A stretch of DNA of 64,000 nt from Ceratorhiza oryzae-sativae (Eukaryota; Basidiomycota; Agaricomycetes; Cantharellales; Ceratobasidiaceae): contig JARWMV010000238.1 in the NCBI GenBank assembly GCA_030998015.1, positions 1,240,001 through 1,304,000 of the forward strand. The letters are read 5' to 3'. Position numbers and translations under genes: made by a program. The notes below the pieces were generated by a model that was not told the origin of the DNA, ran no database searches, and saw nothing but the letters and a program-made list of their open reading frames with translations. Of this stretch, positions 18,087 to 33,047 are shown piece after piece. Position 1 is the stretch's first letter. Each line of letters opens with the position of its first letter.

Positions 18087-20933
18087 TCACTCATCGTAGC
18101 CAAGCCACTTGACATAGTATTCAAAGATGTTAGATCTTTTGTTGTATTGTGACTTTATGATCTGTTCCACTTCAAATTCTTCTTCCCCTTCCGGAGTTAC
18201 CACAGGTGGTGGTGGGGGAACCTGACAGCCATAGGGGTCGTCTTTATATTTGGTGAGGAGTGAGACATGAAACACTGGGTGTATTTTCATGGTTATTGGT
18301 AGGTCCAGTTTGTAGGCATGTGTGCCATGTTGTGCTACCACCTTGAATGGTCCAACTCTTTTGTGGGCCAGTTTCCTGGAGGCCTGCTGTGTCCGTATGT
18401 TTTTGGTATCAAGCCAGACTTTGTCTCCCACCTTAATAGCTTCAGGAGTCCAATGCGTCTGGTCATAGTATTCCTTGATCCTCTGGTTTGCTATTTCCAG
18501 GGCTGCCTTAAGTTCGTCATGGCCCTTTTGGAGCCATTCTGCATGGTTGTCTGCTAAAGGGAGTTCTGGTTCCTCCCTGTCCCCAACTGCTAGCCTTGGG
18601 TGGAAACTGTAGTTTGCAAAGAATGGTGATTTGCCAGTTGAGGCGTTGACACCATTATTGTAGGCAAATTCAGCCAATGGTAGGAGCAAGACCCAGTCGT
18701 CTTGTCTGTCTGATACATAGTGTCTGATGTACCCTTCCACTACTTGGTTGGCCTGTTCAGACTGGCCATCTGTCTGAGGGTGGTATGCTGTGGAGTAGGA
18801 GGGTTTTATATCAAGTTGTTTGTATAAGTGCCTTAAGAATTTGGATGCAAAGTTGGGGCCACAGTCTGAGATTGTTTTCTGTGGTAACCCATGAAGTTTC
18901 CATACATATGTTAGGAACAAGTTGGTGCAATCCATAGCACTGGCTTCCAATTGACATGGAATAAAGTGGACCATTTTTGTCAGGCGGTCGACAACTGTAA
19001 ATATGGCATCAAACCCCTCTGACAGGGGTAGCCTGGTGATCAGATCATAAGTAATTTCCTCCCAAGGTTTTTCTGGCGCGGGTATTGGGTTTAGGAGCCC
19101 TGGGGGAACTTGGTTGCTGTGCTTGTTCCTGATGCATGACTCGCAGTGTGTGACATATTCGTTGACTGATTTTTTCATTGATAACCACGTGTATTTGTGA
19201 TTTAACAATTCATATGTTCTGAACTGTCCTGGGTGTCCTGCTGCTGGGCTGTCGTGATGGCTTTCGATGACCAGTTTGCAAAGTTCTTTGTTATTTGGGA
19301 CATAGATTCTGCCCTTGTGTCGTAAGAGTCCTTTGTCCCATTCCCAATCTTTGACCTTCTCATTGTCATCTAGGGCTTTTAGGACTTTTGATAGGTGTTC
19401 ATCCCCTGGGATAGCATCCCTAATGAGTTGTTCCAGGTCATTGTCTGGCATGATTGCTTGCAGGCATAGCGATTTCAGCTCCAAAAATTGGTTTTGCACA
19501 AGCAGAGCTTGGCTCTCACCCCCCTCTTTAGGGATGTGTCTTGACAGCCTAGAGAGTATGTCTGCCTGGCCATTCTTTGCCCCTTCAATATATAGAATCT
19601 TGAATTCGAACCTGGATAAGAACTCATGCCACTGTGTGACTCGGCCATTCAGTGGCCAATTCGTCTTCCAATACTCCAAATTCTTGTGGTCACAAACAAT
19701 GTTTACTGGGTGTTCGGCCCCTTCTAGCAAATGACACCAGTGTTTGAGGGCCTTTATAATTGCCAGCATTTCTTTGTTGTAGATATCATAATTTCTTTCT
19801 GCTGGGACCATTGCCTTGGAGTAATAGGAAATTGGGTGGAGCATTCTGTCCTCTCCATATTGCAATAATACAGCACCTGTGGCATAGCCTGAGGTGTCCG
19901 TTTCCAAAATGAATGGTTTGTTGGGTTCTGGCTGAATTAGAAGGGGGGCTTCTTTTAATTTCTGCTTCAGCAGGTTCCATGCCTGATCCCTTTCTTCTGT
20001 CCATTCCCATTTTACATCCTTCTTGACAAGTTCATAAAGACATCTTGTAATTTTCGAAAAGTCTTTTATGAAGTGCCTCAACCAATTTGCAAACCCCAAC
20101 CCTTCCAGGACTTCGGTTGGGTTGGTAGGGGTTGGCCATTCGACAGCTTTTTCAACCTTGGCTGGGTCTACTTTAATTCCCTGGGGGGTCACTACTATTC
20201 CCAGGTAATCGACTTCAGTGACATCGAAAACACATTTCTCCAGGGTGCAATATAGGCCAGCTTTTTGGAGGCAACATAAGACTTCCTTGACATGTTCATC
20301 ATGTTCTTCTTGGTTTTTGGAGAATACTAATATGTCATCCATATAGATCACAACATAAATGCCCTTGATGTCTTGGAACTCTTCCCAGATCATGGCCATG
20401 AAGGTTCCCAGTGCGTTCTTTTGACCAAATTGCATGACTAAGGGCTCGTACAGCCCATATTTGGTCTTAAAAGCTGCTTTCCATTCGTCCCCTTCCCGAA
20501 TTCATATGAGGTTGAAGCCCCACTTTAGATCAAACTTGGTGAATATCTTTGCCCCATGCAGAGTCTCCACAATATCATTGATGTGTGGGAGTGGGTACAC
20601 ATTAGAGACTGTCATTTCATTTAGTCACCGGTAGTCAATGCACATGTGCAACTTCCCATTCTTCTTTTTGACAAATATGACTGGGGATGCCATTGGTGAC
20701 CTTGAGGGTCTGATATGCCCTGCTTTCAGTTGGTGGTCCAAGGTTTTGCGCAATTCTGCATCTTCCTTGACACCTACACTATATATGGGGCCATGCCTTG
20801 GCTTGGCATCTGGTTTTAAATCTATTTCCATATCCCACTTCCTATGGGGTGGTAAAGGCTGGATGTCATCTTCTTCAGCAAATATTTTCTTGAACTCCCT
20901 GTATTTGGTTGGGAGGGAATCTAAAGAATCCAA
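18087..20933 (-). pseudogene. Element B pol: reverse transcriptase, RNase H, integrase, chromodomain
   Basis: In minus sense the frame starts near 20933 with MDSLDSLPTKYREFKKIF and the RT motif KKKNGKLHMCIDYR. In-frame TGA codons interrupt it at 20625-20627 and 20502-20504; both sit where RT proteins normally have Arg. From 20435 it runs open for 782 codons. The motifs in order are YMDD (VVIYMDDILVFSKN), RNase H (ETDSGYATGAVL region), the integrase HHCC finger (H-H...CESC), the integrase core D-D-E with HPQTDGQSEQANQ, and the start of a chromodomain (YYVKWLGYDE). A further in-frame TGA at 18087-18089 cuts the chromodomain, whose continuation (QWLTYDDLVNA) is still readable. It is a host-genome retrotransposon relic, not a working gene. 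Confidence 0.9.
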
Positions 20934-20937
20934 CTGG

Positions 20938-21592
20938 TGTTATGACCTGCCTAGCAGACATAACCTAACAACCGAATATTGTACAGATTTATGGCATTTT
21001 TCCCAAAGCAGAACAAACCATAAACAAGATCACGTGATCTTGGCGCTTACCCAACGATTAAGCACCGGTGGTTACCCTGAACTCGCTCCAGCATTTCTCT
21101 CCCATGTTACTTGGAGCGAGGAGCGAGTTGTCACGTGACCTTGGCGCTTACTCAGCGATCAAGCGCTGGTGTTACCCTGAACTCGCTCCAGCATTTCTCT
21201 CCCATGTTACTTGGAGCGAGGAGCGAGTTGTCACGTGACCTTGGCGCTTATCCAGCGATTAAGCGCCTCTTAGTCCAAAAGTCACATGACCCTCAGACCT
21301 TGTGCGCTCTATAAGATTCGGAGCTGCACAAACTTAAGACAAAAATTACCTAACCTAGTACTATATAACCTAACTGCTGTAGAGTGCTTAGATAAGCCAC
21401 CGCAGCACCGCAGCCACAGTATATAAGGGGATAAAGCAAGACTGGACGCCTCAGCTTGCTTTATCTTGTCAACCACCATAGACCATAGCAAACACTGTAA
21501 CTAGAATGCTCAATACATACTGCATAGCACCAAACTGTCAACGCAGCCACTACTTAAGTGCTCCACAAGGGAGCCTCCAGAGGGTCACGACA
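20938..21592 (+). repeat. 5' LTR of element R with 100-base tandem duplication
   Basis: 655 bases against 578 in the 3' LTR. Part of the extra length is a direct repeat of a 100-base unit: GTTACCCTGAACTCGCTCC occurs at 21071 and again at 21171, each followed by a CACGTGACCTTGGCGCTTA block. The LTR carries several TCACGTGA/TCACATGA palindromes. Spaced repeats of AGCGATTAAGCGC type are also present. Confidence 0.9.
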
Positions 21593-21713
21593 TTATAAAG
21601 CAAGCTCTTAACTTAACTAGTGGCGAACATAAGTATACTACACAGATACTAAGGGCTGAGTACACGAGAAAACCAGCTAACTCCTGTGATACATAAGAGA
21701 ACATAAAGAAACT

Positions 21714-23482
21714 ATGTCACAGAGACCACAAACTCAATCTCAAAGCAGAGTGGCAAATAGTAGGCCACAATCACCCAAACCCATTGCTTCCCCAGAGGCT
21801 GAAGGTAACCCAGATGAGACCCTCCAAGGAATGCCAGGGGGGTTGCCACAAAACCCACAACCAGTGGCTCAACCCAACCCCACTCGGGCCCCCATCCTGG
21901 GAGGGGAAATAGGGGGAATACCACTCTGCAGCCCTCAACTGCCAATTCACCTGATAAATCCAGACCCAGAAGATATCTCAAATCCAGAGAGGGATGAGGT
22001 AGAAGATATGACCTGAACCATATACGAACAAGGCACGGCCTTGGCAGAAGAGGCAAGGACACAACCCCAGCCAGGTCCCGGAGCCATAGCCACTGCCAAC
22101 CCTATTCACACCATTGCCACAGCCATCAGGGCGGGGCTCAAGGAACTTAGAGACAATAATCATAGGGAACTAGAAAAGGCAATCACAGGTATAAATCAGT
22201 GTCAAATATCACTAACCCGACAAGAAGGAAACGTGGACTGGATGGTAAGGTCAATGGAAACATCCAACAAAAATGTCCTCTATGTGGCAAAGAACCAGGA
22301 CGACCTAAAAGCAGAAATGGGGAACCTGATAAAAGAATTAAAGGACATCTCCATGGAAATAAACCGGGTACTGGGAATGCAAGAGCGAAAGCTCGAAAGC
22401 TTAGAGAAGAAAACCGAAAACACAGGGGAGATCCTAATCGCACTAGAACAACAGGTAACCATCTAGGAAATGAGCTCCGGAAAACAACTGAAGCAGGAAG
22501 GCCAAGGGAAAGGACAGAAGAAACCAGGGGAAGAACTAGGGTGGTCATAGGAAGCCCCTCACGATCCCCCTCAGCCTCCCCAGTACGAACACCCTTTCTG
22601 GGAAGAACCTTCCAGGCTGAGTCCACAATAAGACCCCGAACAGAACCTCCATCCCAAGCAAACCAACCTACCCTTGCTGCAAACCACACTCCTAAGGAGG
22701 CGAGACTAGGGAGACCCAGCAAATTTAATGGGAAAAAGGGGAAGGAAGCAGAGAACTTCATAATCAGCATGGAACTTTTCTTTGCTGACTATGACGAATC
22801 AGCCTTTGATGACCGAAAAAAGATATCTGCTGTGCTAATGAACATGGAGGATGGGGAAGCAGCAAACTGGGCACAACCTTACCGCCAGAAACTACTAGCA
22901 GGCAAACACACAGGTATTCTTGCATCCTGGAAGGATTTCAGGAAGGGATTCCTGGATGCTTTTAATGACCCAGTCATAAAGGAAAAGACCATCCGGAAAC
23001 TAAGGAAATTAACACAGACCAAGAGTGCATTGGATTATGCTACCCAATTCCGGATCCTGATCCAAGAGGTAGACTGGAACCAGGAAGCCCTCAAGGACCA
23101 ATTCAGGGAAGGGTTAAAACCCAAAGTACGACAAGAGATCTTAAGGATTGAAGTACTGGCAAATGAGGCTGAAGGTCCATCATATACCTTAGATCAATTA
23201 ATTGACTTTGCCTGCAAAATGGACACATGCAGTTTGCAACCAGAAAATGAATACAAGGACCAGCAACTCATCAAATTCAACCTGGGCACCAGCAAAATAC
23301 AAACAAGGGGGAACAAGCCTTTAGGGACCAGCGGCAAACAGGGGAATACCCAAACCAACAACATGGTAAGGATACCAAACAGTGAAAAGGACAGGTGAAG
23401 GAAAGAAGGACTCTGTATCAAATGCAGTAAATCAGGGCATGTCCTGAAGGAGTGCCAGGCCAGTGGACCTACACAAAGCTAA
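21714..23482 (+). pseudogene. Element R gag with zinc knuckle, disrupted
   Basis: The ATG at 21714 opens a Gln/Pro-rich N-terminus. It stops at a TGA (22014), resumes in the same frame to a TAG (22464), and the main capsid part is in another frame (to 23398). That part contains the retrotransposon-gag signature (FNGKKGKEAENFIISMELFF, then DFRKGFLDAFNDP). After an in-frame TGA at 23396-23398 the knuckle CIKCSKSGHVLKEC (C-x2-C-x4-H-x4-C) is encoded at 23414-23455. There are three stops and at least one frame change, so the gene is inactive. Confidence 0.85.
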
Positions 23483-23560
23483 GATACAAGGGAAGGCCAG
23501 CAGACAAGTTGAGGAAGAAAGCAGCTCTGAGTCGGAAAACTAATTGGTCCTACCACTTCC

Positions 23561-26500
23561 ATGTTGGAGGACCCCAATATAACCCCTACCACAGATGTAT
23601 GTTACCTCAAGAAGTCTAGTAATCAATCAATAATATACACTACGGTAGAGGGAATCATGGAACCAGCTAAGACGCTGATTGACTCAGGATCTTCAACCAA
23701 CTTCATCGATAAGGCCTATTCAAGGGAAAAAGGGATTCCAACCACTCCCCTCAAACACAAGAAATCAATTGTGGCCATTGATGGAAATGAAATCAAGGAT
23801 GCCATAGAAGAAAGGGCAGAACTAAACATCGAAGTGGAAGGGAAGACACTAAAATGCTCCCTTTATGTAATGACCCTAGGTGACACAGACATAGTCCTAG
23901 GGAAAGAATGGCTTGAAGAAGCAGAACCTATCATAGATTGGAAAGACCTTACCATCTCATACCCAGATGAAATCAAGGCAAGGGCAGCAAGTGAAAGCCT
24001 ACAAATCCCAGAAGAATTTAGGGATTTTGAAGACCTATTTGGGGAAGAAGGTTTCCAGAACTTCCACCCCACCAGGTAACCTAGACTTCAAAATGGACCT
24101 GATCGAGGGAGCGGAGCTGCCAAAGCCTGCAAAGAGGTACAGTATGTTGCCAGCAGAAACAAAGGCGCTCAGGGAGTACCTAGAGGAGGAACTAAGAAAC
24201 GGGAAAATAAGGCCCAGCCAGTCAGTTGTAGCTGCACCCTGTTTCTATGTGAACAAAGCAGATGGAGGGCTTAGGTTGGTAGTCGACTACCGTAAGATGA
24301 ATGACATCACCAAGCCAGACAGGTTTCCACTTCCAATCCAAATAGAATTGATTGAGAGACTGAAGGATGCAACCATCTATTCAAAAATGGATGTTCGATG
24401 GGGGTTCAACAACATCAGGGTAAAAGAGGGAGACGAATGGAAAACAGCTTTCAGGACAGGAGAAGGCCAGTTTGAATGCTTGGTCATGCCATTCAGAGTA
24501 AAAGAAGGACCAAGAACCTTTACCAGGTTCATGATGGAAAAGTTCCATGATATAATAGACAATTATGTGGTAATCTACATGGACGATGTACTAGTGTTTT
24601 CCAGAAACAGGGAAGAACACGTACAACATGTCAGGGAAGTGTTAAGAAGAATGAGGGAAAACCACCTCTTCCTCAAACCACACAAGTGTCAGTTCTTTGT
24701 GAAGGAGGTAAGCTTCATTGGAATTGTCATATCCCCAGGAGGGATATCAATGGAAAAGGAAAAGGTAAAGGCAGTTCTAGAATGGCCAGAACCTAACACA
24801 GTAAAAGAAGTCCAAGCCTTCCTAGGCTTCGTGGGGTTCTATAGAAGGTGGATAGAGAAGTTTAGTACCTTAGCCAAACCCCTCACAGATCTCACCCAAA
24901 AAGATGTCAAATTCCTGTGGGAAAGAAAACAACAGGAAGCATTTGAAGCTATCAAAGAAGCAGTAGCAAGAGAACCAGTCCTGATCCACCCAAACCCAAA
25001 CAGGCCATACATACTGGAAACAGATGCCTCAGGAGTGGCCATGGGGGCGTACTAAGCCAAAAGGGTGATGACAACCATTGCATCCAATTGCCTTCCTATC
25101 GAAGAGCTTCACCCCACCAGAGAAAAATTATGACACCTACGACAAGGAGTTGCTTGCAATTGTTAGGTCCTTAGAGCACTGGAGGTTATACTTAGAAGGG
25201 ACAGAGGAACCTATTGTGATATACACTGACCATAGGAACCTCCAGTACTGGCAAAATGCCCAGATGTGGAATAGAAGGCATGCCAGATGGTATCTCACTC
25301 TGGCACCCTTCAATTTTCAGATTGTGTATAGACCAGGGAAACTCTCACAGAAGCCAGATGCCCTTTCCAGAAGGAGCGACCATGGGGATACCCCTATGGA
25401 ACCACAGATCATGATTCCAGAAGAAAGGTTCATAGGTTTCATGGCAGAAGTACAGGGGAATTTCTGGGAAGAGCTTAAAGAAGCTCAGGAAGAAGACGAA
25501 TCTATCAGATCCTTAAGGCTGAGTGGCAAATAAAGAACAACTACCCCCCTCAGTACAGAAGGAATTTAGACGGTATGAAATGAAGGAGGGCCTATTAAGG
25601 TATGACGATAGGCTCTACATCCCGATGACAAGGACTTGAGGTTGAGTCTCCTTGAGGAGTGCCATGATGCCCCAGTGGCAGGTCATCAGGGACAAGCCCG
25701 AACACTAGAATTACTATCAAGGGATTACTATTGGCCAGGAATGAAGGCCCAAGTAAACCGATACGTGGAATCTTGTGAAACATGTCAAAGAAGCAAAGGA
25801 CACAAACAAGGCACTCCCCTGAAGTCCTTACCAATCCCATGGAAACCATGGGCAGATGTCGCATATGATTTCATTGTCAAATTACCTGTCTCAAAGGGGT
25901 ACGACAGTATCTTGACAGTTGTAGATCGCTTCTCCCGGCAGGCCCATTTTGTACCATGTCTGGAGAGCACCAATGCAGAAGAACTGGCAGAAATATTCAT
26001 AAGGGAAGTATGGAGACATCACGGGACCCCAGAAACCACTGTCTCAGACCGAGGGCCAACCTTTAACAGCCAATTCCTAAAAGCCCTATACAAAGGAATT
26101 GGGACAAAGCCCAGATTCTCCACTGCTTTCCATCCAGAAACAGATGGTCTGTCGGAAAGGACAAATCAATGGGTAGAAGGGTTCTTAAGAACCTTCTGCA
26201 ATTATAGACAAGATGATTGGGTAAAATGGTTACCCATTGCCGAATTCTGCCATAACAACCACGTAAATGCTACAACAGGACAAACCCCATTTGAAACAGT
26301 ATATGGAAAAAACCCAAGATGGGTTGTCCAGAGGGAGAAGAACCATCTGAGGCACCCGCTGCAGACAACATGCGTAATCAAATGGAAAAGGTATGGGATG
26401 AGGCAAGAGCCTCAATGGAATTACACCAACAAATGGAAAAGAAAGGGAGGGAATTCAAGGTAGGAGACAAGGTTTGGCTGCTCCTAACAAACCTCTCGTC

Positions 26501-27865
26501 CAAGAGACCCTCCAAGAAACTGGACAACCGAAAAGGGGGGCCCTTTGAAATCACAGAAAAGATCTCATCCCATGCATATGCCTGGACCTACCTAAAACCA
26601 TACTGTACACAATGTATTCCATGTAAATCTCCTCTCGCCATTCACAGAAGATAAAGACTTCCAAGAAGGCAGGCCAAACCACCACCAATCATAACGGAAA
26701 AAGGAGAGGAGGAATACAAGGTGGACCACATTGCAAATTATGAATGGCGGAATGGCAGCTGTTTTACCAAATCAGATGGAAGGGCTATGACCCAATAGAA
26801 GACACAATGGAACGTGCCAGCAAGTTTGCTGACATGAAAGAGGTTCTAAATGACTTGCAAAGGCGCTTACCAGACGCACCAATGCCAGTCAAGACAAGTC
26901 AGCACTCAGGTGACTTGAAAGGCAGGCCAAAGAGAACCAAACGAGGATCTGGAAAGCTTTAAAAAGAGCCATCCAAGATACCCAAGAAAGGCCAGAGCCT
27001 GCTCTACCACCTCACTTGCACCACAACACACCTGCGAAACCCCAAAACATGCCTTTCGTCACTCACCCAGTCGCACATCCCAACCGTTACACCCCACTTG
27101 CTGAAAATCAGGTGGCCCCACTTTGGCAGCCACCCACCACCAGGCGCAGCACACCCTACCCTGGCAGGGAAAATCGTCCTAAACCAGGGATGTACTGCTC
27201 CAGTGTGGAAGCCCAGAGGTACGCGAACACTGTTGCCAGGGGCTAACCTAGTGTACATCCCAAAGAAGTTAAGGGATGAAAGGAACTGGATTGACAATGA
27301 CAAGTACCTGGATCCCAGGTTAGGGGTCCTGACATGGCATGGAAGCCGGAAGCCAACAATGAGAAACGCCTTGTTAAGAACACCGATGTATGTCGTCAAC
27401 AATATTGTGGGACCAACAGTCAACGTGGTGACCAAGGCAGCAAGACAACAGAGGAGGGCCACAGGCCAAATGGCAGACAGAGGGGACTGGGAGGTGGAGC
27501 GCCAGGCAAAGGCATTGCTGGAAGAATGGAAGTTGACACCAGCTGCACCGTATGTGGGACTGCTCGAAGCAACTACCACTGATGAGATGTTTACTGCTAT
27601 CAGGACGAAGCAGGCAAACATGAGTGACTTCCGAAATTGGGTGAAGGTGCACCCAAACAAAAACACCAATTACAACACTGATATGACGAGCCTTACATCA
27701 AGCCTAGAATCACTGGTCGTGGCTGAGGAAGAAGCCAAGCCAGAAATAAAGGAACCCACCCTGGACCCAGCTGCGGAGGAAACCAAACAGGACTGGGACC
27801 AGTGGGAAAACGAGCTTGTTGAAGCTCTGGAGGAGGTGCCACTGTTGGAACCAACCCCCATATGA
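23561..27865 (+). pseudogene. Element R pol: protease to chromodomain plus C-terminal extension, disrupted
   Basis: Protease: LIDSGSSTNFID near 23675-23710. Reverse transcriptase: residues DGGLRLVVDYRKMND and VVIYMDDVLVFSRN. RNase H: ETDASGVAMGAY, then a stop at 25053, resuming at 25078 ([14 protein letters not shown]). Integrase: zinc finger H-x-H...CETCQ (25660-25790) and core with TVVDRFSR and VSDRGPTFNS. Chromodomain: LFYQIRWKGYDPIEDT (26756-26803). A further 300-codon part (about 26963-27865) shows MPFVTHPVAHPNRYTPL, LVYIPKKLRDERNWIDN and an acidic end. I read it as a C-terminal extension of pol of unknown function. Five or more frame changes and stops show decay; the last 200 codons are open. 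Confidence 0.85.
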
Positions 27866-27958
27866 CCACTTTGCCTCCCACAAATTGTCTCCCGAATGTA
27901 TAAGAGTTTTATTTTCTTTTACACACCAAACTTAATACATTTCCTTTTACTCTCTATT
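27866..27958. terminator. Convergent 3' ends of pol and the minus-strand cargo gene
   Basis: About 90 bases separate the pol stop (27863-27865) from the TAA of the minus-strand gene (27959-27961). The interval is T-rich on the plus strand (GAGTTTTATTTTCTTTTA) and gives AATAAAA-like words on the minus strand, suitable for polyadenylation of either transcript. The assignment is inferred. Confidence 0.35.
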
Positions 27959-28434
27959 TTAACGTTTGCCCTTGAGGGGCCGGGTAGTGGGCTGCAGCCA
28001 AGGAGCCTCCCCCCCTGGGAAGTCGGCCATGTAGTTCTGGAAACACCCAGAACCAGACACTGCAAAGGGTGAAGCCTCATCAAACAAGGGAGCAGAGCCC
28101 TCCTTGAAGAATTCAGCAAGAGCGGCCTGGTGAGACTGCTCCTCAAAGGACTTGTAGTCCTGATCAACAAGTGCCCAGACACGCTCAAGGGTGGCCTCAT
28201 GGGCCCGACCATCAAGGAGGATGCGCTCTTCTACAGAACAAGTTAGCTACGTGAGAACAACAAAGAACAAACACACATACCTGGCACCCCACAGAAGAAC
28301 CAGTCCCCAACACCTTGATAGAAGTCTTCAAGGGAGGCGTCGCACACGGCATCACAGTAGGCGCAGTACTCCCCCTCAGGGAGAGACCAGCAGGTGCAGT
28401 CAAGGGGATTGTAGTTAAGGGAAATAACACGCAT
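27959..28434 (-). CDS. Small spliced cargo gene of element R, unknown (141 aa)
   Basis: The ATG at 28432-28434 opens MRVISLNYNPLDCTCW. Exon 28281-28434 joins 27959-28230 across a 50-base intron (28231-28280) with GTATGT donor, CTAAC branch and CTGTAG acceptor. The reading frame is preserved (phase 1) to a TAA, giving 141 residues. The first exon is Cys/Trp-rich (CTCW, CAYCDAVC, WFFCG). The second is acidic and helical (ERVWALVDQDYKSFEEQS), with a Gly/Pro-rich tail ending in basic GKR. No family is recognised. It is transcribed divergently from the Rep gene. A working intron argues for a nuclear-expressed gene that entered as DNA; an intron on the strand opposite to R's genomic RNA would also survive retrotransposition. 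The function is unknown. Confidence 0.6.
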
Positions 28435-28914
28435 AGTAAAGACGGGATGAGGAAGGAAAACAACAAAACCACAAACATTAAAAAATCACAGTGCAACACA
28501 ATAACTTGCACAAACATCAAAACAAGGTCTGGTCAGGTGACACCAACAGACACGTGACCATCTGCCAGAAAACAAACAACAAAGCATAGGAATCACATGA
28601 CCTAGCCTAGTCACGTGAATATACGCTATCCCCTAACTACCAGAGGGGTCGGAGAGGGGGCACCGACCGAAGTGGGGGAGCGGAGGCCCTGAGCGTAGCA
28701 AGGATCAAGGCCGATGCAGAGGAACAGATGGGAGGGCACCCCTCAGAGATGCATCATCACCGAAATAAGGTCATGTGATCACAACAAATGCAAGACAGAG
28801 TCATGTGACAATCAAAACAGACCTTGCAGCTTATATAGACAAGCACAAGGCCCGAGATAACCCACACTCTCATGCTCTCTTCCCAGTCCCCAAATACCTC
28901 TAAAACTGTAAACA
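28435..28914. promoter_or_regulatory. Divergent promoter region between cargo gene and Rep
   Basis: 480 bases, GC-richer than the flanking retroelement. It holds five TCAYGTGA-type palindromes (about 28551 CACGTGAC, 28592 CACATGAC, 28611 CACGTGA, 28772 CATGTGA, 28802 CATGTGAC) that match motifs in both LTRs of element R. A TATA-like TTATATAGA stands at about 28831, some 80 bases before the Rep ATG. Two adjacent hairpins occur: CCCCT/AGGGG around AACTACCAG (about 28630-28648) and GGTCGG/CCGACC around a purine-rich loop (about 28648-28670). The layout resembles the long intergenic region of geminivirus-like genomes, but no TAATATTAC nonanucleotide is present. Confidence 0.5.
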
Positions 28915-30201
28915 ATGCTAAGCAGAAATGGATCGAATGCAGCAACACCCCAGCCAAGCAGATCAAGCAAAGGGCAGAGGTTGGCATCACCATTGCCAGC
29001 GCCCTCGGTATCAAGCCAAGCCCCCTTGCTTGCTTCTATGTGGCCTACGCCAACAGATCAAGGGTCTGAAGAGCTGACCGAAACCGCAGTGGCCCCTCGG
29101 TTCCGCGTCCAGACCAGGGCGGTGCTGCTGACCTGGTCGAAGCTACACGATCAGCCCTCAAGTGGGCTCGTCGCCCGATACAAGGCGTTCTGCCGCCAAC
29201 GGCCAAATCATTGGGCGACTTTGGCAGTGGTGGAACGCCACAACCCCGAGGAACCAAACTACAACCTGGCCTGGCCCCTCCATGTCCACACCCTCTCCAT
29301 CAGTCAGGAGCAGAAGGGCGGCTGGAACACCCAGAACACCTGGTTCTGGGACTTCGAAGGGCAACACCCCAACATCCTGCCGAAGGACCTCAAGGACGGA
29401 CCAGGAGGCAACCCTGCAAGGGAGGCTTTCAACTACCTCTGGAAGGATGTTGGAGCTAACAGCAAGGAAGTAGAGGAGCTGATGGCGGGGGACCTGACCT
29501 TGGAAAGGTTGGAGGAAATCCTGGTGAAGGGGAAGGGCAGGAAAAGGTCAAGGGCAGAGGCGGACCTGGAGGATGGGGTGGAGATTGTTGCCTCGGCAAC
29601 AAAAAAAGAATACTACCAGGCTTTCAAGCGTCTGCGCCCCCTCCAGATGGTGACGACGTGGAACTTGGTACAAGCATATGCTGAGTACACGTATAAGGAG
29701 GACCGGGGATGCATGCCTGCAATCCTGGTGGAGTTGGAAGTCCCAGAAGACCGGGCGCACATTGACAGGGTGGACCGATGGTTTGCAGAAGAGGCTGAGA
29801 AGAGAGGGAGGGGCGTGCGCCATTGCATCCTGGTGATCAAAGGCGAAACAGGAACTGGGAAGACGGTGTATGCGCGATCCAAGGGCTCCCATAGCCAGAT
29901 GTGCAACGTCTGGAACGTGGGGAATCTGTCAGAGGATGCCAACATCTGGATCCTGGATGACATGGTCCAGTCAAACGGGAAGTACTTGCTCAAAGCCCTG
30001 AGCCAGTACAAGGCAGACTTCACAGGCAGATATGCTCATGTGAAGTCAATGAAGGTACGACCAACAGTGATCCTGGGGAATAGCCGGTCAGCCATAATGA
30101 AGTGTTGGACGTACATAGAGGGGGAAGAAGGGGACTTATGGGTATCCAAAAACGTAGACTGGGTATACTCAGGAGGGAAGCCATTTTTTGTTTTTCCTTA
30201 A
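28915..30201 (+). CDS. CRESS-DNA virus / geminivirus-type Rep (HUH endonuclease plus SF3 helicase)
   Basis: One uninterrupted frame of 428 residues from the ATG at 28915. Residues 1-60 are a disordered Ser/Pro/Ala leader. HUH endonuclease motifs: LLTW (71-74, motif I), HVH (123-125, motif II) and YLWK (174-177, motif III with the likely catalytic Tyr), preceded by a geminivirus-like WDFEGQHPNI (145-154). After a basic linker (GKGRKRSR, 206-213) comes the superfamily-3 helicase: Walker A GETGTGKT (310-317), Walker B WILDD (345-349) and motif C ILGNS (386-390). The fold order is that of Reps from circular ssDNA viruses and related plasmids, which nick and rejoin origin DNA for rolling-circle replication. 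The gene keeps many CpGs and has no stop or frame break, although the surrounding retroelement is wrecked. Expression and activity are unknown. Confidence 0.88.
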   Translation: MLSRNGSNAATPQPSRSSKGQRLASPLPAPSVSSQAPLLASMWPTPTDQGSEELTETAVAPRFRVQTRAVLLTWSKLHDQPSSGLVARYKAFCRQRPNHWATLAVVERHNPEEPNYNLAWPLHVHTLSISQEQKGGWNTQNTWFWDFEGQHPNILPKDLKDGPGGNPAREAFNYLWKDVGANSKEVEELMAGDLTLERLEEILVKGKGRKRSRAEADLEDGVEIVASATKKEYYQAFKRLRPLQMVTTWNLVQAYAEYTYKEDRGCMPAILVELEVPEDRAHIDRVDRWFAEEAEKRGRGVRHCILVIKGETGTGKTVYARSKGSHSQMCNVWNVGNLSEDANIWILDDMVQSNGKYLLKALSQYKADFTGRYAHVKSMKVRPTVILGNSRSAIMKCWTYIEGEEGDLWVSKNVDWVYSGGKPFFVFP

Positions 30202-30300
30202 AAAATAAAAACAAATTATCTTTGTATAAGCTGTTTTATTCACAGACCATGTGTCGAGAAGTAAGCTTAAACAAGGAAATAAGCAAGGAGAAAGTAATCT

Positions 30301-30400
30301 CATGTAGTGTAGAGGTTAAGGGGTCTAGCCTGACTCATCATCTCCTAGCTGAGCAATTACACATCGAATGGAAGGTCATTGGTTTGAGTCCAGTGCCTTT
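30301..30400 (+). other. tRNA-like Pol III promoter boxes before the polypurine tract
   Basis: TAGTGTAGAGGTTAAGG (about 30305) resembles a box A/D-arm. GGTTTGAGTCC (30381-30391) is a good box B, and ATTGG/CCAGT flank it as a T-stem. The spacing is longer than in a plain tRNA, and I could not fold an acceptor or anticodon stem. It is possibly a tRNA-derived (SINE-like) relic in the 3' end of element R. Confidence 0.3.
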
Positions 30401-30485
30401 AACCTCCTTGATATATGAGATACCTTTTAGAAACTTTTAGAACCCAGAAAAGAAACATGCCTTGAGATCCCCCAAGACATGTCCA

Positions 30486-30498
30486 AAGGGGGGGATAA
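30486..30498 (+). other. Polypurine tract of element R
   Basis: AAAGGGGGGGATAA-type purine run directly before the TG of the 3' LTR, the usual plus-strand primer site of LTR retrotransposons. Confidence 0.75.
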
Positions 30499-31076
30499 TG
30501 TTATGACCTGCCTAGCAGACATAACCTAACAACCGAATATTGTACAGATTTATGGCATTTTTCCTGAAGCAGAACAAACCATAAACAAGATCACGCGATC
30601 TTGGCGCTTACCCAACGATTAAGCGCCAGTGGTTACCCTGAACTCGCTCCAGCATTTCTCTCCCATGTTACTTGGAGCGAGGAGCAAGTTGTCACATGAC
30701 CTTGGTGCTTATCCAGCGATTAAGCACCGGGTGCTTAAGTCCAAAAGTCACATGACCCTCGGACCTTGCGCGGCTCTATAAGATTTGGAGCCGCACAAAC
30801 TTAGGATAAATGATTACCTAAGACCTAGTACTATATAGGACCTATAACTGCTGTAGACAGTGCTTAGGAAAGGGGGGCCACCACAGCAACCGCAGTCACA
30901 TGTATATAAGGGGAGTAAAGCAAGACTGAACGCCTCAGCTTGCTTTATCTTGTCAACCACCATAGACCATAGCAAACACTGTAACTAGAATGCTCAATAC
31001 ATACTGCATAGCATCAAACCATCAATGCAGCCACTACTTAAGTGCTCCACAAGGGAGCCTCCAGAGGGTCACGACA
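30499..31076 (+). repeat. 3' LTR of element R
   Basis: 578 bases matching 20938-21592, with one copy of the 100-base unit instead of two. It is followed by the ACTGG target duplication and then by the protease frame of element B. Confidence 0.92.
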
Positions 31077-31081
31077 ACTGG

Positions 31082-31641: not shown

Positions 31642-33047
31642 TCTTTTACTGACTCATTGTCAGTTGTTTCTACATCCTCAACCACTGCCTCGTATCCTGA
31701 CATCTTAGCTGAGGGGCATTTGGCTGCAATATGACCCTGTCCTCCACAGTTATAGCAGGTGTTTGTCCCCTTTCCTTTTCCTGCACTATCCAGATCCATT
31801 GCGTCCAGATCCTTTGCCTTGGGGGCTGCCGGTGGATGGTTATCCTTCTTTATGTCCTTGAAGGATTCTTGTATGTTGGCATTGCTGCCATTGTAGCAGA
31901 CAGTTGGAACTGTGAAACCCTTTGCATTGGGCCCAATGGCCACAATCTGACCTTTTACAGCTCTCCTGTCCTTAATCTTATATATCTGTTCCCCATTTTT
32001 GAATTTCTCCTTTTGGGGAGTGCTTTGGGGGTTATTGGTTGGCCTACTGGACAAGGCATTGCTGCTGGGCTTGTTACTCCCATGAGACATTCATTTGCTA
32101 CCGAACAAGATGAGGTGGCGGTCAATTTCCAGGGCTTGCTGAGTGAGTTGGGCAAAGGTTTTGGTGCGGGGGTCATAGTTTTGGGCCACCATGCTATCTG
32201 TTACATCTGACGATAGACCATTGTAGAACTGATCATGCATGGTGGCATCATTGTAGTTGAGACCTGTGGAATATAGGTTGAATAGGGTGAGGTAATCCTG
32301 AACCGTCTTGGATTGTTTCAGTTTCCGCCACTTGTCGCGGTTATTTTCAGTGCAATTCAGGTCTCTGTAACAGGTAGTAAATTCTTGCCAGAACAGATTG
32401 GCATTGTGAAGCCAGGGGATTGCAGTTCCAGGGTTTAAAATTTTGAATTCTTCATACAAGTTGACCCATTCAGCTGCTGATCCTTCAAGGTAGGATGTGA
32501 TAAATGCAACCACTTGGTCAGCTGAGTGCCCACTCATATTTGTATTGATGTATCGGGCACATGCAATCCTGAATGAGATGGCTTCTTCATGCTTTGTACC
32601 ATCAAACTTTTGGGGAGCCACCATCTTGACTTTTATGGTTGATCTGCCAGTGGTAACAGTAGCTGTTGGCTGTGGTTGGGTCACACCAGTGGTTGGTTGT
32701 GCTTGGGTGGCACCTGAGCCACCTGATGAGGTGTTTATTTGTGCTTCAACACGTGTGATAGATGTTTGAAGTATTGCTAACATGCCCACAAGGTTATTGA
32801 CACTGGTGGCCAGTCCGGCCACATTGGCATCTATTTTTGTCTGGTTGGTGGTGAGCTTTGCTTCGAGCATATCCGTGTACATCTTATTGTTATGTTCTAT
32901 GTCTCCAATGTCATTTTGGAGGTTGTTGGTTCATTCTTGTAATTCATCCATTGACTGGAGCATATAGATGACCTTTTCCCCATCAGACATATTTGCCCAA
33001 GCAGGGGTAGAGGGTTGTGACACCATTTCAGAGAAGATTTGGTAAAA
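31638..33047 (-). pseudogene. Element B gag with CCHC knuckle, two TGA stops
   Basis: One minus-strand frame read through TGA codons at 32931-32933 and 32091-32093. The N-terminal part has coiled-coil-like spacing (MLEAKLTTNQTKIDANVAGL). The capsid part has KFDGTKHEEAISFRIACARY and WVNLYEEFK, as in retrotransposon gag domains. The nucleocapsid knuckle CYNCGGQGHIAAKC (C-x2-C-x4-H-x4-C) lies near 31725-31766. The start near 33047 is inferred from the upstream open frame (MVSQPSTPAWANMSDGEK); a downstream Met is possible. Confidence 0.85.

What the first reader, a model, noticed from the sequence alone, without database searches (positions are those of the whole stretch)
28915..30201. Intact geminivirus-type Rep gene carried inside a Ty3/gypsy retrotransposon
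A single open frame encodes all HUH motifs (LLTW, HVH, YLWK) and the SF3 helicase motifs (GETGTGKT, WILDD, ILGNS). It lies between pol and the polypurine tract/3' LTR of element R. Rep-like genes integrated in fungal genomes are known; a Rep riding as cargo of an LTR retrotransposon would link rolling-circle replication proteins with a reverse-transcribing element. R's gag and pol are full of stops and frame changes, but Rep has none in 428 codons.
Basis: partly seen in the sequence, partly recalled or inferred. Interest (0 to 1): 0.95.

Follow-up and report, generated by a model that had tools for sequence, protein, structure and literature searches.

The report
Viral-type Rep carried by fungal retrotransposon
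In this likely fungal genome, a family of jumping genes that copy themselves through RNA carries, in most copies checked, a conserved gene predicted to encode the replication starter of small circular DNA viruses, which likely gives the element a second, DNA-level way to multiply.

Summary
The 428-codon ORF at 28915-30201 lies inside a complete LTR unit (20938-31076) flanked by a 5-bp target duplication, ACTGG. It is not a late nested insertion: the 30 best Rep loci all run into the same LTR, 28 of the 30 best pol-anchored loci carry the cassette, and 100 of 117 pol-end places have a Rep within 4 kb downstream. Whole Rep-bearing units have 5-bp duplications in 6 of 7 copies. Rep is under purifying selection (dN/dS 0.26; 0.17 between two Rep types), with motif residues kept in 33-34 of 34 copies.

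Rep stands head to head with a spliced antisense gene, also under selection. Related elements have an intron in Rep that R copies lack, while the antisense gene keeps its own: the mark of passage through RNA.

The Rep identification is probable, not proven: motifs in order plus below-cut-off Gemini_AL1_M matches; structure prediction failed. DNA-level rolling-circle amplification is inferred and untested.

The parts
20933..20937 (.). 5' copy of the target-site duplication ACTGG
20938..21592 (+). 5' LTR (TGTTATGACC...GGTCACGACA), with two ~100-bp tandem units
22199..23395 (+). gag ORF fragment (Retrotrans_gag, Ty3_capsid)
23561..24076 (+). protease ORF fragment (RVP_2)
23967..25052 (+). reverse transcriptase ORF fragment (RVT_1, start of RNase H)
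25078..25530 (+). RNase H ORF fragment
25636..26460 (+). integrase ORF fragment (H2C2 zinc binding; rve core just below its cut-off)
27098..27862 (+). C-terminal end of pol, used as an anchor to find R copies
28281..28434 (-). antisense gene, exon 1
28231..28280 (-). antisense gene, 50-nt intron GT..CTAAC..AG
27959..28230 (-). antisense gene, exon 2 (141-aa product here, 163 aa in the commonest form)
28435..28914 (.). intergenic region between the two divergent genes (candidate bidirectional promoter); segment 28548-28618 is duplicated in many copies
28647..28668 (+). GGTCGG-AGAGGGGGCA-CCGACC inverted repeat in the intergenic region; candidate origin, untested
28832..28837 (+). TATATA box 83 nt before the Rep start codon (28 of 30 loci have one at 82-86 nt)
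28915..30201 (+). Rep-like gene: predicted HUH endonuclease plus SF3 helicase, 428 aa
30204..30209 (+). AATAAA next to the Rep stop codon (27 of 30 loci have one within 40 nt)
30485..30498 (+). polypurine tract AAAGGGGGGGATAA, directly before the 3' LTR
30499..31076 (+). 3' LTR
31077..31081 (.). 3' copy of the target-site duplication ACTGG

Best explanation
A Ty3/gypsy retrotransposon family carries, between pol and the 3' LTR, a conserved gene whose product is predicted to be a HUH-endonuclease plus SF3-helicase Rep and likely nicks and unwinds the element's own circular or linear DNA copies, so that they would multiply by rolling circle before integrating or being transcribed. Shown here: Rep is a fixed part of the element (position, LTRs, target duplications), is kept by selection in its motif residues, has a TATA-like box before it and AATAAA after it, and is paired head to head with a spliced antisense gene. 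Also shown: more distant elements have an intron in Rep that R lacks exactly, while the antisense gene keeps its intron. Inferred: the gene was taken, perhaps with its antisense partner and shared control region, from a circular ssDNA replicon of the geminivirus/genomovirus type before these element families split, and its sense-strand intron was later lost through a spliced RNA. Untested: nicking, the origin (the inverted repeats of the intergenic region and of the LTR are candidates only), rolling-circle DNA, expression and nuclear entry.
For: Fixed cargo. Age within the lineage: of three elements with RT 61-63% identical to R's, two carry Rep and one is interrupted; a fourth, chosen by its pol end (51% identical), carries Rep. 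Close relatives occur in several Ceratobasidium genomes. Selection: dN/dS 0.255 over 28 copies, 0.134 in the helicase part, 0.165 between Rep types 1 and 2. Motif residues H123, H125, Y174, K177, K316 and N389 are kept in 34 of 34 copies, and the residues checked, apart from one T317S, in the three distant loci. The antisense gene shows dN/dS 0.18-0.24. RNA passage: intron present in distant Reps, absent in R Reps, antisense intron kept. Identity: below-cut-off Gemini_AL1_M matches in 11 of 27 proteins, best E 0.001 over 96 of 107 positions.
Against: No Pfam family reaches its cut-off, and the window protein has no match at all. The genome-wide search with PF08283 did not land on the Rep copies, though its control genomes did not ring either. 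No related solved structure is found by sequence. Two AlphaFold models are of no use (mean pLDDT 33 and 36). The element has no NANTATTAC motif of the usual CRESS origin. The inverted repeats of the intergenic region show hardly any covariation (3 of 38 pairs), and those of the LTR are not clearly kept in distant families. Among type-2 copies dN/dS is weaker, 0.40 over 15 pairs. Nothing here shows expression or extrachromosomal DNA.
Confidence: 0.45

Rival explanations
1. Rep is a selected accessory protein of the retrotransposon but works on the host rather than on element DNA: it would bind host replication, repair or silencing factors in the nucleus to favour cDNA synthesis, integration or escape from silencing. 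The antisense partner would do likewise.
For: No usual origin motif in the element. A basic stretch around residues 210-213 (KRSR) is nearly invariant in the alignment and could be part of a nuclear signal. Antisense accessory genes of other LTR elements are suspected regulators (PMC7264820, passages read).
Against: Both the nicking and the helicase motifs are kept over long divergence, and the helicase part is the most constrained. A pure adaptor would not need that.
Confidence: 0.27
2. Rep would process the element's cDNA directly, for example by nicking and rejoining LTR ends or circles to help integration, with no rolling-circle amplification.
For: HUH enzymes cut and join single strands (established knowledge). 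The two LTRs of one insertion differ in length by 77-201 nt in 5 of 6 copies compared.
Against: The element encodes its own integrase and makes ordinary 5-bp duplications in 6 of 7 copies, so no extra enzyme is called for.
Confidence: 0.1
3. Rep is a passenger that benefits the fungus or the element by blocking infecting circular ssDNA mycoviruses, as a decoy or competing initiator.
For: A geminivirus-related DNA mycovirus is cited in PMC3198968 (reference-list passage). The gene is selected and has promoter-like and poly(A)-like signals.
Against: The motif residues of an active enzyme are kept. No relative of this Rep was found in two scans of viral contigs, which use few short patterns.
Confidence: 0.08
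4. A circular ssDNA virus fragment inserted by chance into one old R copy and decayed slowly; it was never part of a mobile unit.
For: The Rep frame happens to be open while gag-pol is broken.
Against: 30 of 30 and 28 of 30 loci and distant elements carry it at the same place; selection.
Confidence: 0.01
5. The protein is not a Rep but another P-loop protein whose short motifs resemble those of Rep by chance.
For: No family over its cut-off; weak matches also to nSTAND3, AAA_22 and others.
Against: Six motifs in the Rep order; the nSTAND3 and AAA_22 matches cover 18-41 residues at the P-loop, while the Gemini_AL1_M match covers nearly its whole profile up to and including the P-loop. HUH and helicase residues are nearly invariant.
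Confidence: 0.09

Closest known systems
Geminivirus-like Rep transposon of Tuber melanosporum (Liu et al. 2011, PMC3198968; passages and the whole of section 8 read)
   Same: A geminivirus-type Rep gene multiplied in a fungal genome as part of a mobile element (42 genes or remnants there).
   Different: There the carrier is described as a transposon with 37-bp terminal inverted repeats and transposase ORFs, no obvious target duplication, and an interrupted Rep. Here the carrier is an LTR retrotransposon with 5-bp duplications, and Rep is open in many copies and under selection.
LTR retrotransposons with additional ORFs, sense or antisense, between pol and 3' LTR (plant Grande, RIRE2, Retand; fungal Boty with antisense brtn) (PMC7264820; passages read)
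   Same: Same place in the element, present in most copies of a family, conserved like the element's own proteins; antisense genes are known there too.
   Different: That paper has 0 occurrences of 'helicase', 'geminivir' or 'rolling'. Here a sense Rep and a spliced antisense gene form one head-to-head cassette.
Bdelloid rotifer LTR retrotransposons with captured enzymatic ORF3 (DEDDy exonuclease, GDSL esterase) (PMC5408684; passages read)
   Same: Enzyme genes acquired at the ORF3 place and shared between retroelement types.
   Different: Different enzymes. 'Rolling' and 'Rep protein' occur 0 times there; 'helicase' occurs once, in a passage I did not see.
CRESS-DNA virus Rep (Geminiviridae, Genomoviridae); recalled, not compared by alignment
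   Same: Motif order HUH I-III then SF3 A, B, C; central-domain profile weakly matched; head-to-head partner gene across an intergenic region.
   Different: No profile over cut-off, no usual origin nonamer, no recognisable capsid gene, carried by a retrotransposon.

Membership tests
Ty3/gypsy LTR retrotransposon | Two LTRs, polypurine tract, 5-bp target duplication | tested here: met
   Window and 6 further copies; duplication in 6 of 7, not in L029
Ty3/gypsy LTR retrotransposon | gag, then protease, RT, RNase H, integrase in this order | tested here: met
   Pfam on six ORF pieces
LTR element with additional ORFs | Extra gene fixed at one place in most copies | tested here: met
   30 of 30 and 28 of 30 best loci; 100 of 117 pol-end places
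CRESS-type Rep (HUH endonuclease + SF3 helicase) | HUH motifs I, II and III with a single catalytic Tyr (YxxK) | tested here: met
   By motif reading (motifs recalled); W74, H123, H125, Y174 and K177 the same in 34 of 34 copies; fold not confirmed
CRESS-type Rep (HUH endonuclease + SF3 helicase) | Walker A, Walker B and motif C of SF3 helicases | tested here: met
   By motif reading (motifs recalled); conserved in 33-34 of 34 copies
CRESS-type Rep (HUH endonuclease + SF3 helicase) | Confident fold match to a Rep structure | tested here: inconclusive
   Models of mean pLDDT 33 and 36, not searched
Geminivirus Rep (Pfam Gemini_AL1, Gemini_AL1_M) | Profile score over the curated cut-off | tested here: not met
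   Gemini_AL1_M best 19.5 bits against a cut-off of 24; Gemini_AL1 no match (the genome search rang in no control genome and says little)
CRESS virus or replicon | Origin hairpin with NANTATTAC-type nonamer | tested here: not met
   No NANTATTAC in 20938-31076 on either strand
CRESS virus or replicon | Capsid gene | tested here: not met
   The partner antisense product matches no Pfam family and no database protein
Geminivirus-like TIR transposon (Tuber type) | Terminal inverted repeats and transposase ORFs around Rep | tested here: not met
   Unit is bounded by LTRs with 5-bp duplications and holds gag-pol
Helitron | Two-Tyr HUH plus Pif1-type helicase | tested here: not met
   Single YxxK motif and SF3-type motifs by reading; no Pfam match of any kind

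The most novel reading that the evidence does not exclude
A reverse-transcribing element with two replication modes: RNA-templated copying by its RT, and Rep-driven rolling-circle copying of its DNA from an origin in its own intergenic region or LTR. It would be a stable merger of an LTR retrotransposon with an ambisense circular ssDNA replicon (Rep and antisense gene across a shared control region), kept by selection since before its element families split.
Probability: 0.35. Interest if true: 0.97.

Novelty: new variant of a known kind. Interest (0 to 1): 0.88.

Why it matters
Rolling-circle initiators and reverse-transcribing elements are thought of as separate replication worlds. A Rep kept by selection as a standing gene of an LTR retrotransposon joins them in one mobile unit, gives a route by which Rep genes can spread through fungal genomes, and makes a direct question testable: does a retroelement use Rep to multiply as DNA? 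The lost sense intron beside a kept antisense intron is a natural experiment in sequence, indicating that the cassette travels through RNA.

Tried and rejected
Nested-insertion reading: rejected. Usual CRESS origin: no NANTATTAC in the element. LTR hairpin GGCGCTTA-9 nt-TAAGCGCC as origin: hairpins with a 9-nt loop occur after Rep in 27 of 30 loci, mostly this one, but by eye its right arm is not seen in two distant LTRs, where CpG sites have decayed, so it stays a weak candidate. Structure of the intergenic region: strongly conserved but almost without covariation (DNA fold z-score -1.7); no Rfam match. Structure prediction: two jobs of no use, so no fold search was made. PHROGs, NCBIfam and PDB sequence searches gave only weak ATPase-type or chance matches. 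Viral contigs: nothing related. A tblastn of a relative against plasmids gave only chance matches.

Of the 17 others, three carry Rep in fetched loci (L039, L040, L048), two do not (L041, L055) and 12 were not read. In one search, 28 of 30 loci were used (two 1281-nt ones left out). In one search, four of the 30 loci (L031, L034, L038, L047) are copies already among L001-L030, and L001/L031 are the window copy. Both sets of 30 are the best-scoring matches, not a random sample. The dN/dS of the pol end (0.27 over 26 loci) is rough, because all 26 have insertions or deletions against the window piece.

Full report
What is there. The window lies in a 48.8-Mb genome in 253 contigs. The ORF 28915-30201 is open over 428 codons and lies inside an LTR unit: 5' LTR 20938-21592, 3' LTR 30499-31076, polypurine tract directly before the latter, ACTGG on both sides. 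Six ORF pieces between them give gag, protease, RT, RNase H and integrase in Ty3 order and a pol end.

Cargo or nested insertion. A protein search of the whole genome scored 98 Rep places of 252 candidates, 88 of them 1281-1284 nt long without a gap. A later search with a distant Rep listed 151 matches. The 30 loci fetched around the best Rep places all run into the R LTR; in the four where I measured it, the LTR starts 297-301 nt after the last Rep codon. Anchoring instead on the pol end, 28 of the 30 best loci show the same order: pol end, antisense gene, intergenic region, Rep. L041 has nothing of it and L055 only the antisense gene. Pairing coordinates, 71 of 117 pol-end places have a Rep from then on the same strand within 4 kb downstream, and 100 of 117 with the places added. 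Three more of the 117 carry Rep in fetched loci, two do not, and 12 were not read. For six more copies I fetched the 5' end. 5-bp duplications flank the whole unit in L016, L020, L022, L024 and L030 but not in L029; with the window that is 6 of 7. LTR pairs differ by 1.2-3.6% in five of these copies and by 30 of 560 sites in the window copy, 29 of them transitions.

Older than this family. Three elements whose RT is 61-63% identical to R's and one chosen by its pol end (51% identical) were read downstream of pol. Three of the four carry Rep: L085, L086 and L088, 60-71% identical over its main part. L085 and L086 have the antisense gene and an LTR-like stretch further on. L088, the one chosen by its pol end, has Rep soon after the pol end and no antisense gene was found. 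L087 has the antisense gene and intergenic pieces, interrupted by an R LTR, and no Rep was found in the stretch read.

Selection. Pairwise over 28 copies, dN is 0.030 and dS 0.120 (ratio 0.255); by part 0.66 (residues 1-60), 0.28 (61-210), 0.20 (211-300) and 0.13 (301-428). Rep type 1 (65 places, 85% identity or more) and type 2 (33 places, 77-82%) were compared using six type-2 copies: dS is 0.62 and dN/dS 0.165; within type 2 the ratio is 0.40 (15 pairs), as expected if much of that difference is decay. The motif residues are the same in 33 or 34 of 34 copies and, apart from one T317S, in the three distant loci. Rep has TATATA 82-86 nt before its start in 28 of 30 loci and AATAAA within 40 nt of its last codon in 27 of 30.

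The antisense gene. On the minus strand at 28434-27959 lies a gene with a 50-nt intron (GT..CTAAC..AG). Of 58 loci (some of them the same copy), 55 give a GT..AG model; 48 have a product of at least 141 aa (31 of them 163 aa), 7 a shorter one, and 3 gave no model. In the window copy it is 141 aa. Exon 1 over 54 loci gives dN/dS 0.24, the first 68 codons of exon 2 over 53 loci 0.18, and the intron differs by 7.7% on average over 53 loci. It matches no Pfam family and no database protein.

Introns as a tracer. The three distant Reps contain a 61-63 nt intron (GTAAG..TAG) splitting codon 88 after its second base. The window Rep reads straight through at the same point, and the 88 places of 1281-1284 nt have no room for it. 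Some relatives from Ceratobasidium AG-Ba and metagenomes carry an insert at the same place in their predicted proteins (P0016, P0024, P0031, P0046), which I read as an unspliced intron (inference). Rep runs with the genomic RNA and has lost its intron; the antisense gene runs against it and has kept its own. This is what passage of a spliced RNA through reverse transcription predicts (inference).

Modular exchange. Elements with similar pol end and antisense gene (93-98% DNA identity to the window) carry either Rep type 1 or type 2 (first part 79-82% DNA identity for type 2). The similarity breaks inside the intergenic region at about 28761, and in three type-2 copies the 3' UTR and LTR differ as well (72-83%, apart from one short repeat piece at 91%). 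Rep therefore seems to change hands together with the 3' end of the element, perhaps by template switching (inference).

Is it a Rep. Six motifs occur in the order known for CRESS Reps (motif knowledge recalled; positions). Pfam finds nothing in the window protein. In 11 of 27 proteins of the alignment Gemini_AL1_M matches below its cut-off, best 19.5 bits, E 0.001, profile positions 11-106 of 107, ending at the P-loop. The nSTAND3 and AAA_22 matches cover 18-41 residues at the P-loop. Searching the genome with PF08283 itself gave three weak hits elsewhere and not the Rep copies; no control genome rang. Structure prediction failed twice. I therefore call it a probable HUH-SF3 Rep of geminivirus/genomovirus likeness, not a member of the geminivirus family.

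How it may work. The two candidate origin regions are the intergenic region and the LTR. The intergenic region has a segment 71-79% identical in three distant loci, with invariant stretches and inverted repeats, among them GGTCGG-AGAGGGGGCA-CCGACC. The LTR carries ~100-bp units with inverted repeats, and the two LTRs of one insertion differ in length by 77-201 nt in 5 of 6 copies. Neither region has the usual nonamer, and covariation is nearly absent. The most likely role is amplification of the element's DNA by rolling circle; host-directed or cDNA-processing roles are rivals.

Print. Ten library searches, of which I saw the listings, showed no report of a Rep carried by an LTR retrotransposon; the library lacks most subscription papers. 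The nearest are the Tuber TIR transposon with Rep (PMC3198968), additional ORFs in plant and fungal LTR elements (PMC7264820, passages) and captured enzymes in rotifer LTR elements (PMC5408684, passages). In the passages seen of one listed paper on strawberry endogenous viruses (PMC11359110) no such case appears.

Noticed in passing
window 18087-20435 (-) and 32091-32879 (-): Pol (RT from its middle on, integrase, chromodomain) and gag pieces of another Ty3 element on the minus strand flank R on both sides, so R seems nested in a chromodomain-type element.
   Followed up: partly
window 21071-21266, 30632-30727; LTRs of L001-L030: A ~100-bp LTR unit with inverted repeats is tandemly repeated in varying number, and LTR length differs between the two LTRs of one insertion in 5 of 6 copies.
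   Followed up: partly
window 28548-28618; L002-L060: A 71-bp stretch of the intergenic region with TCACGTGA/TCACATGA-like motifs is duplicated in many copies but single in the window copy; another subset has a longer, diverged duplication.
   Followed up: partly
window 21597-22180: The leader and gag start are 98-100% identical in the 40 best places scored (169 candidates), while LTR and Rep differ more: either a recent burst with mixed 3' ends or strong constraint on the leader.
   Followed up: no
L088 (C30): A distant element has Rep soon after the pol end, and no antisense gene was found there.
   Followed up: no
P0016, P0024, P0031, P0046: Database Reps from AG-Ba and metagenomes hold inserts at the codon-88 intron site, suggesting that the intron is old and widespread.
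   Followed up: partly
Rep places; LTRs: Stops in decayed copies are mostly TGA and LTR differences mostly transitions, which fits C-to-T decay (CpG methylation or RIP-like).
   Followed up: no
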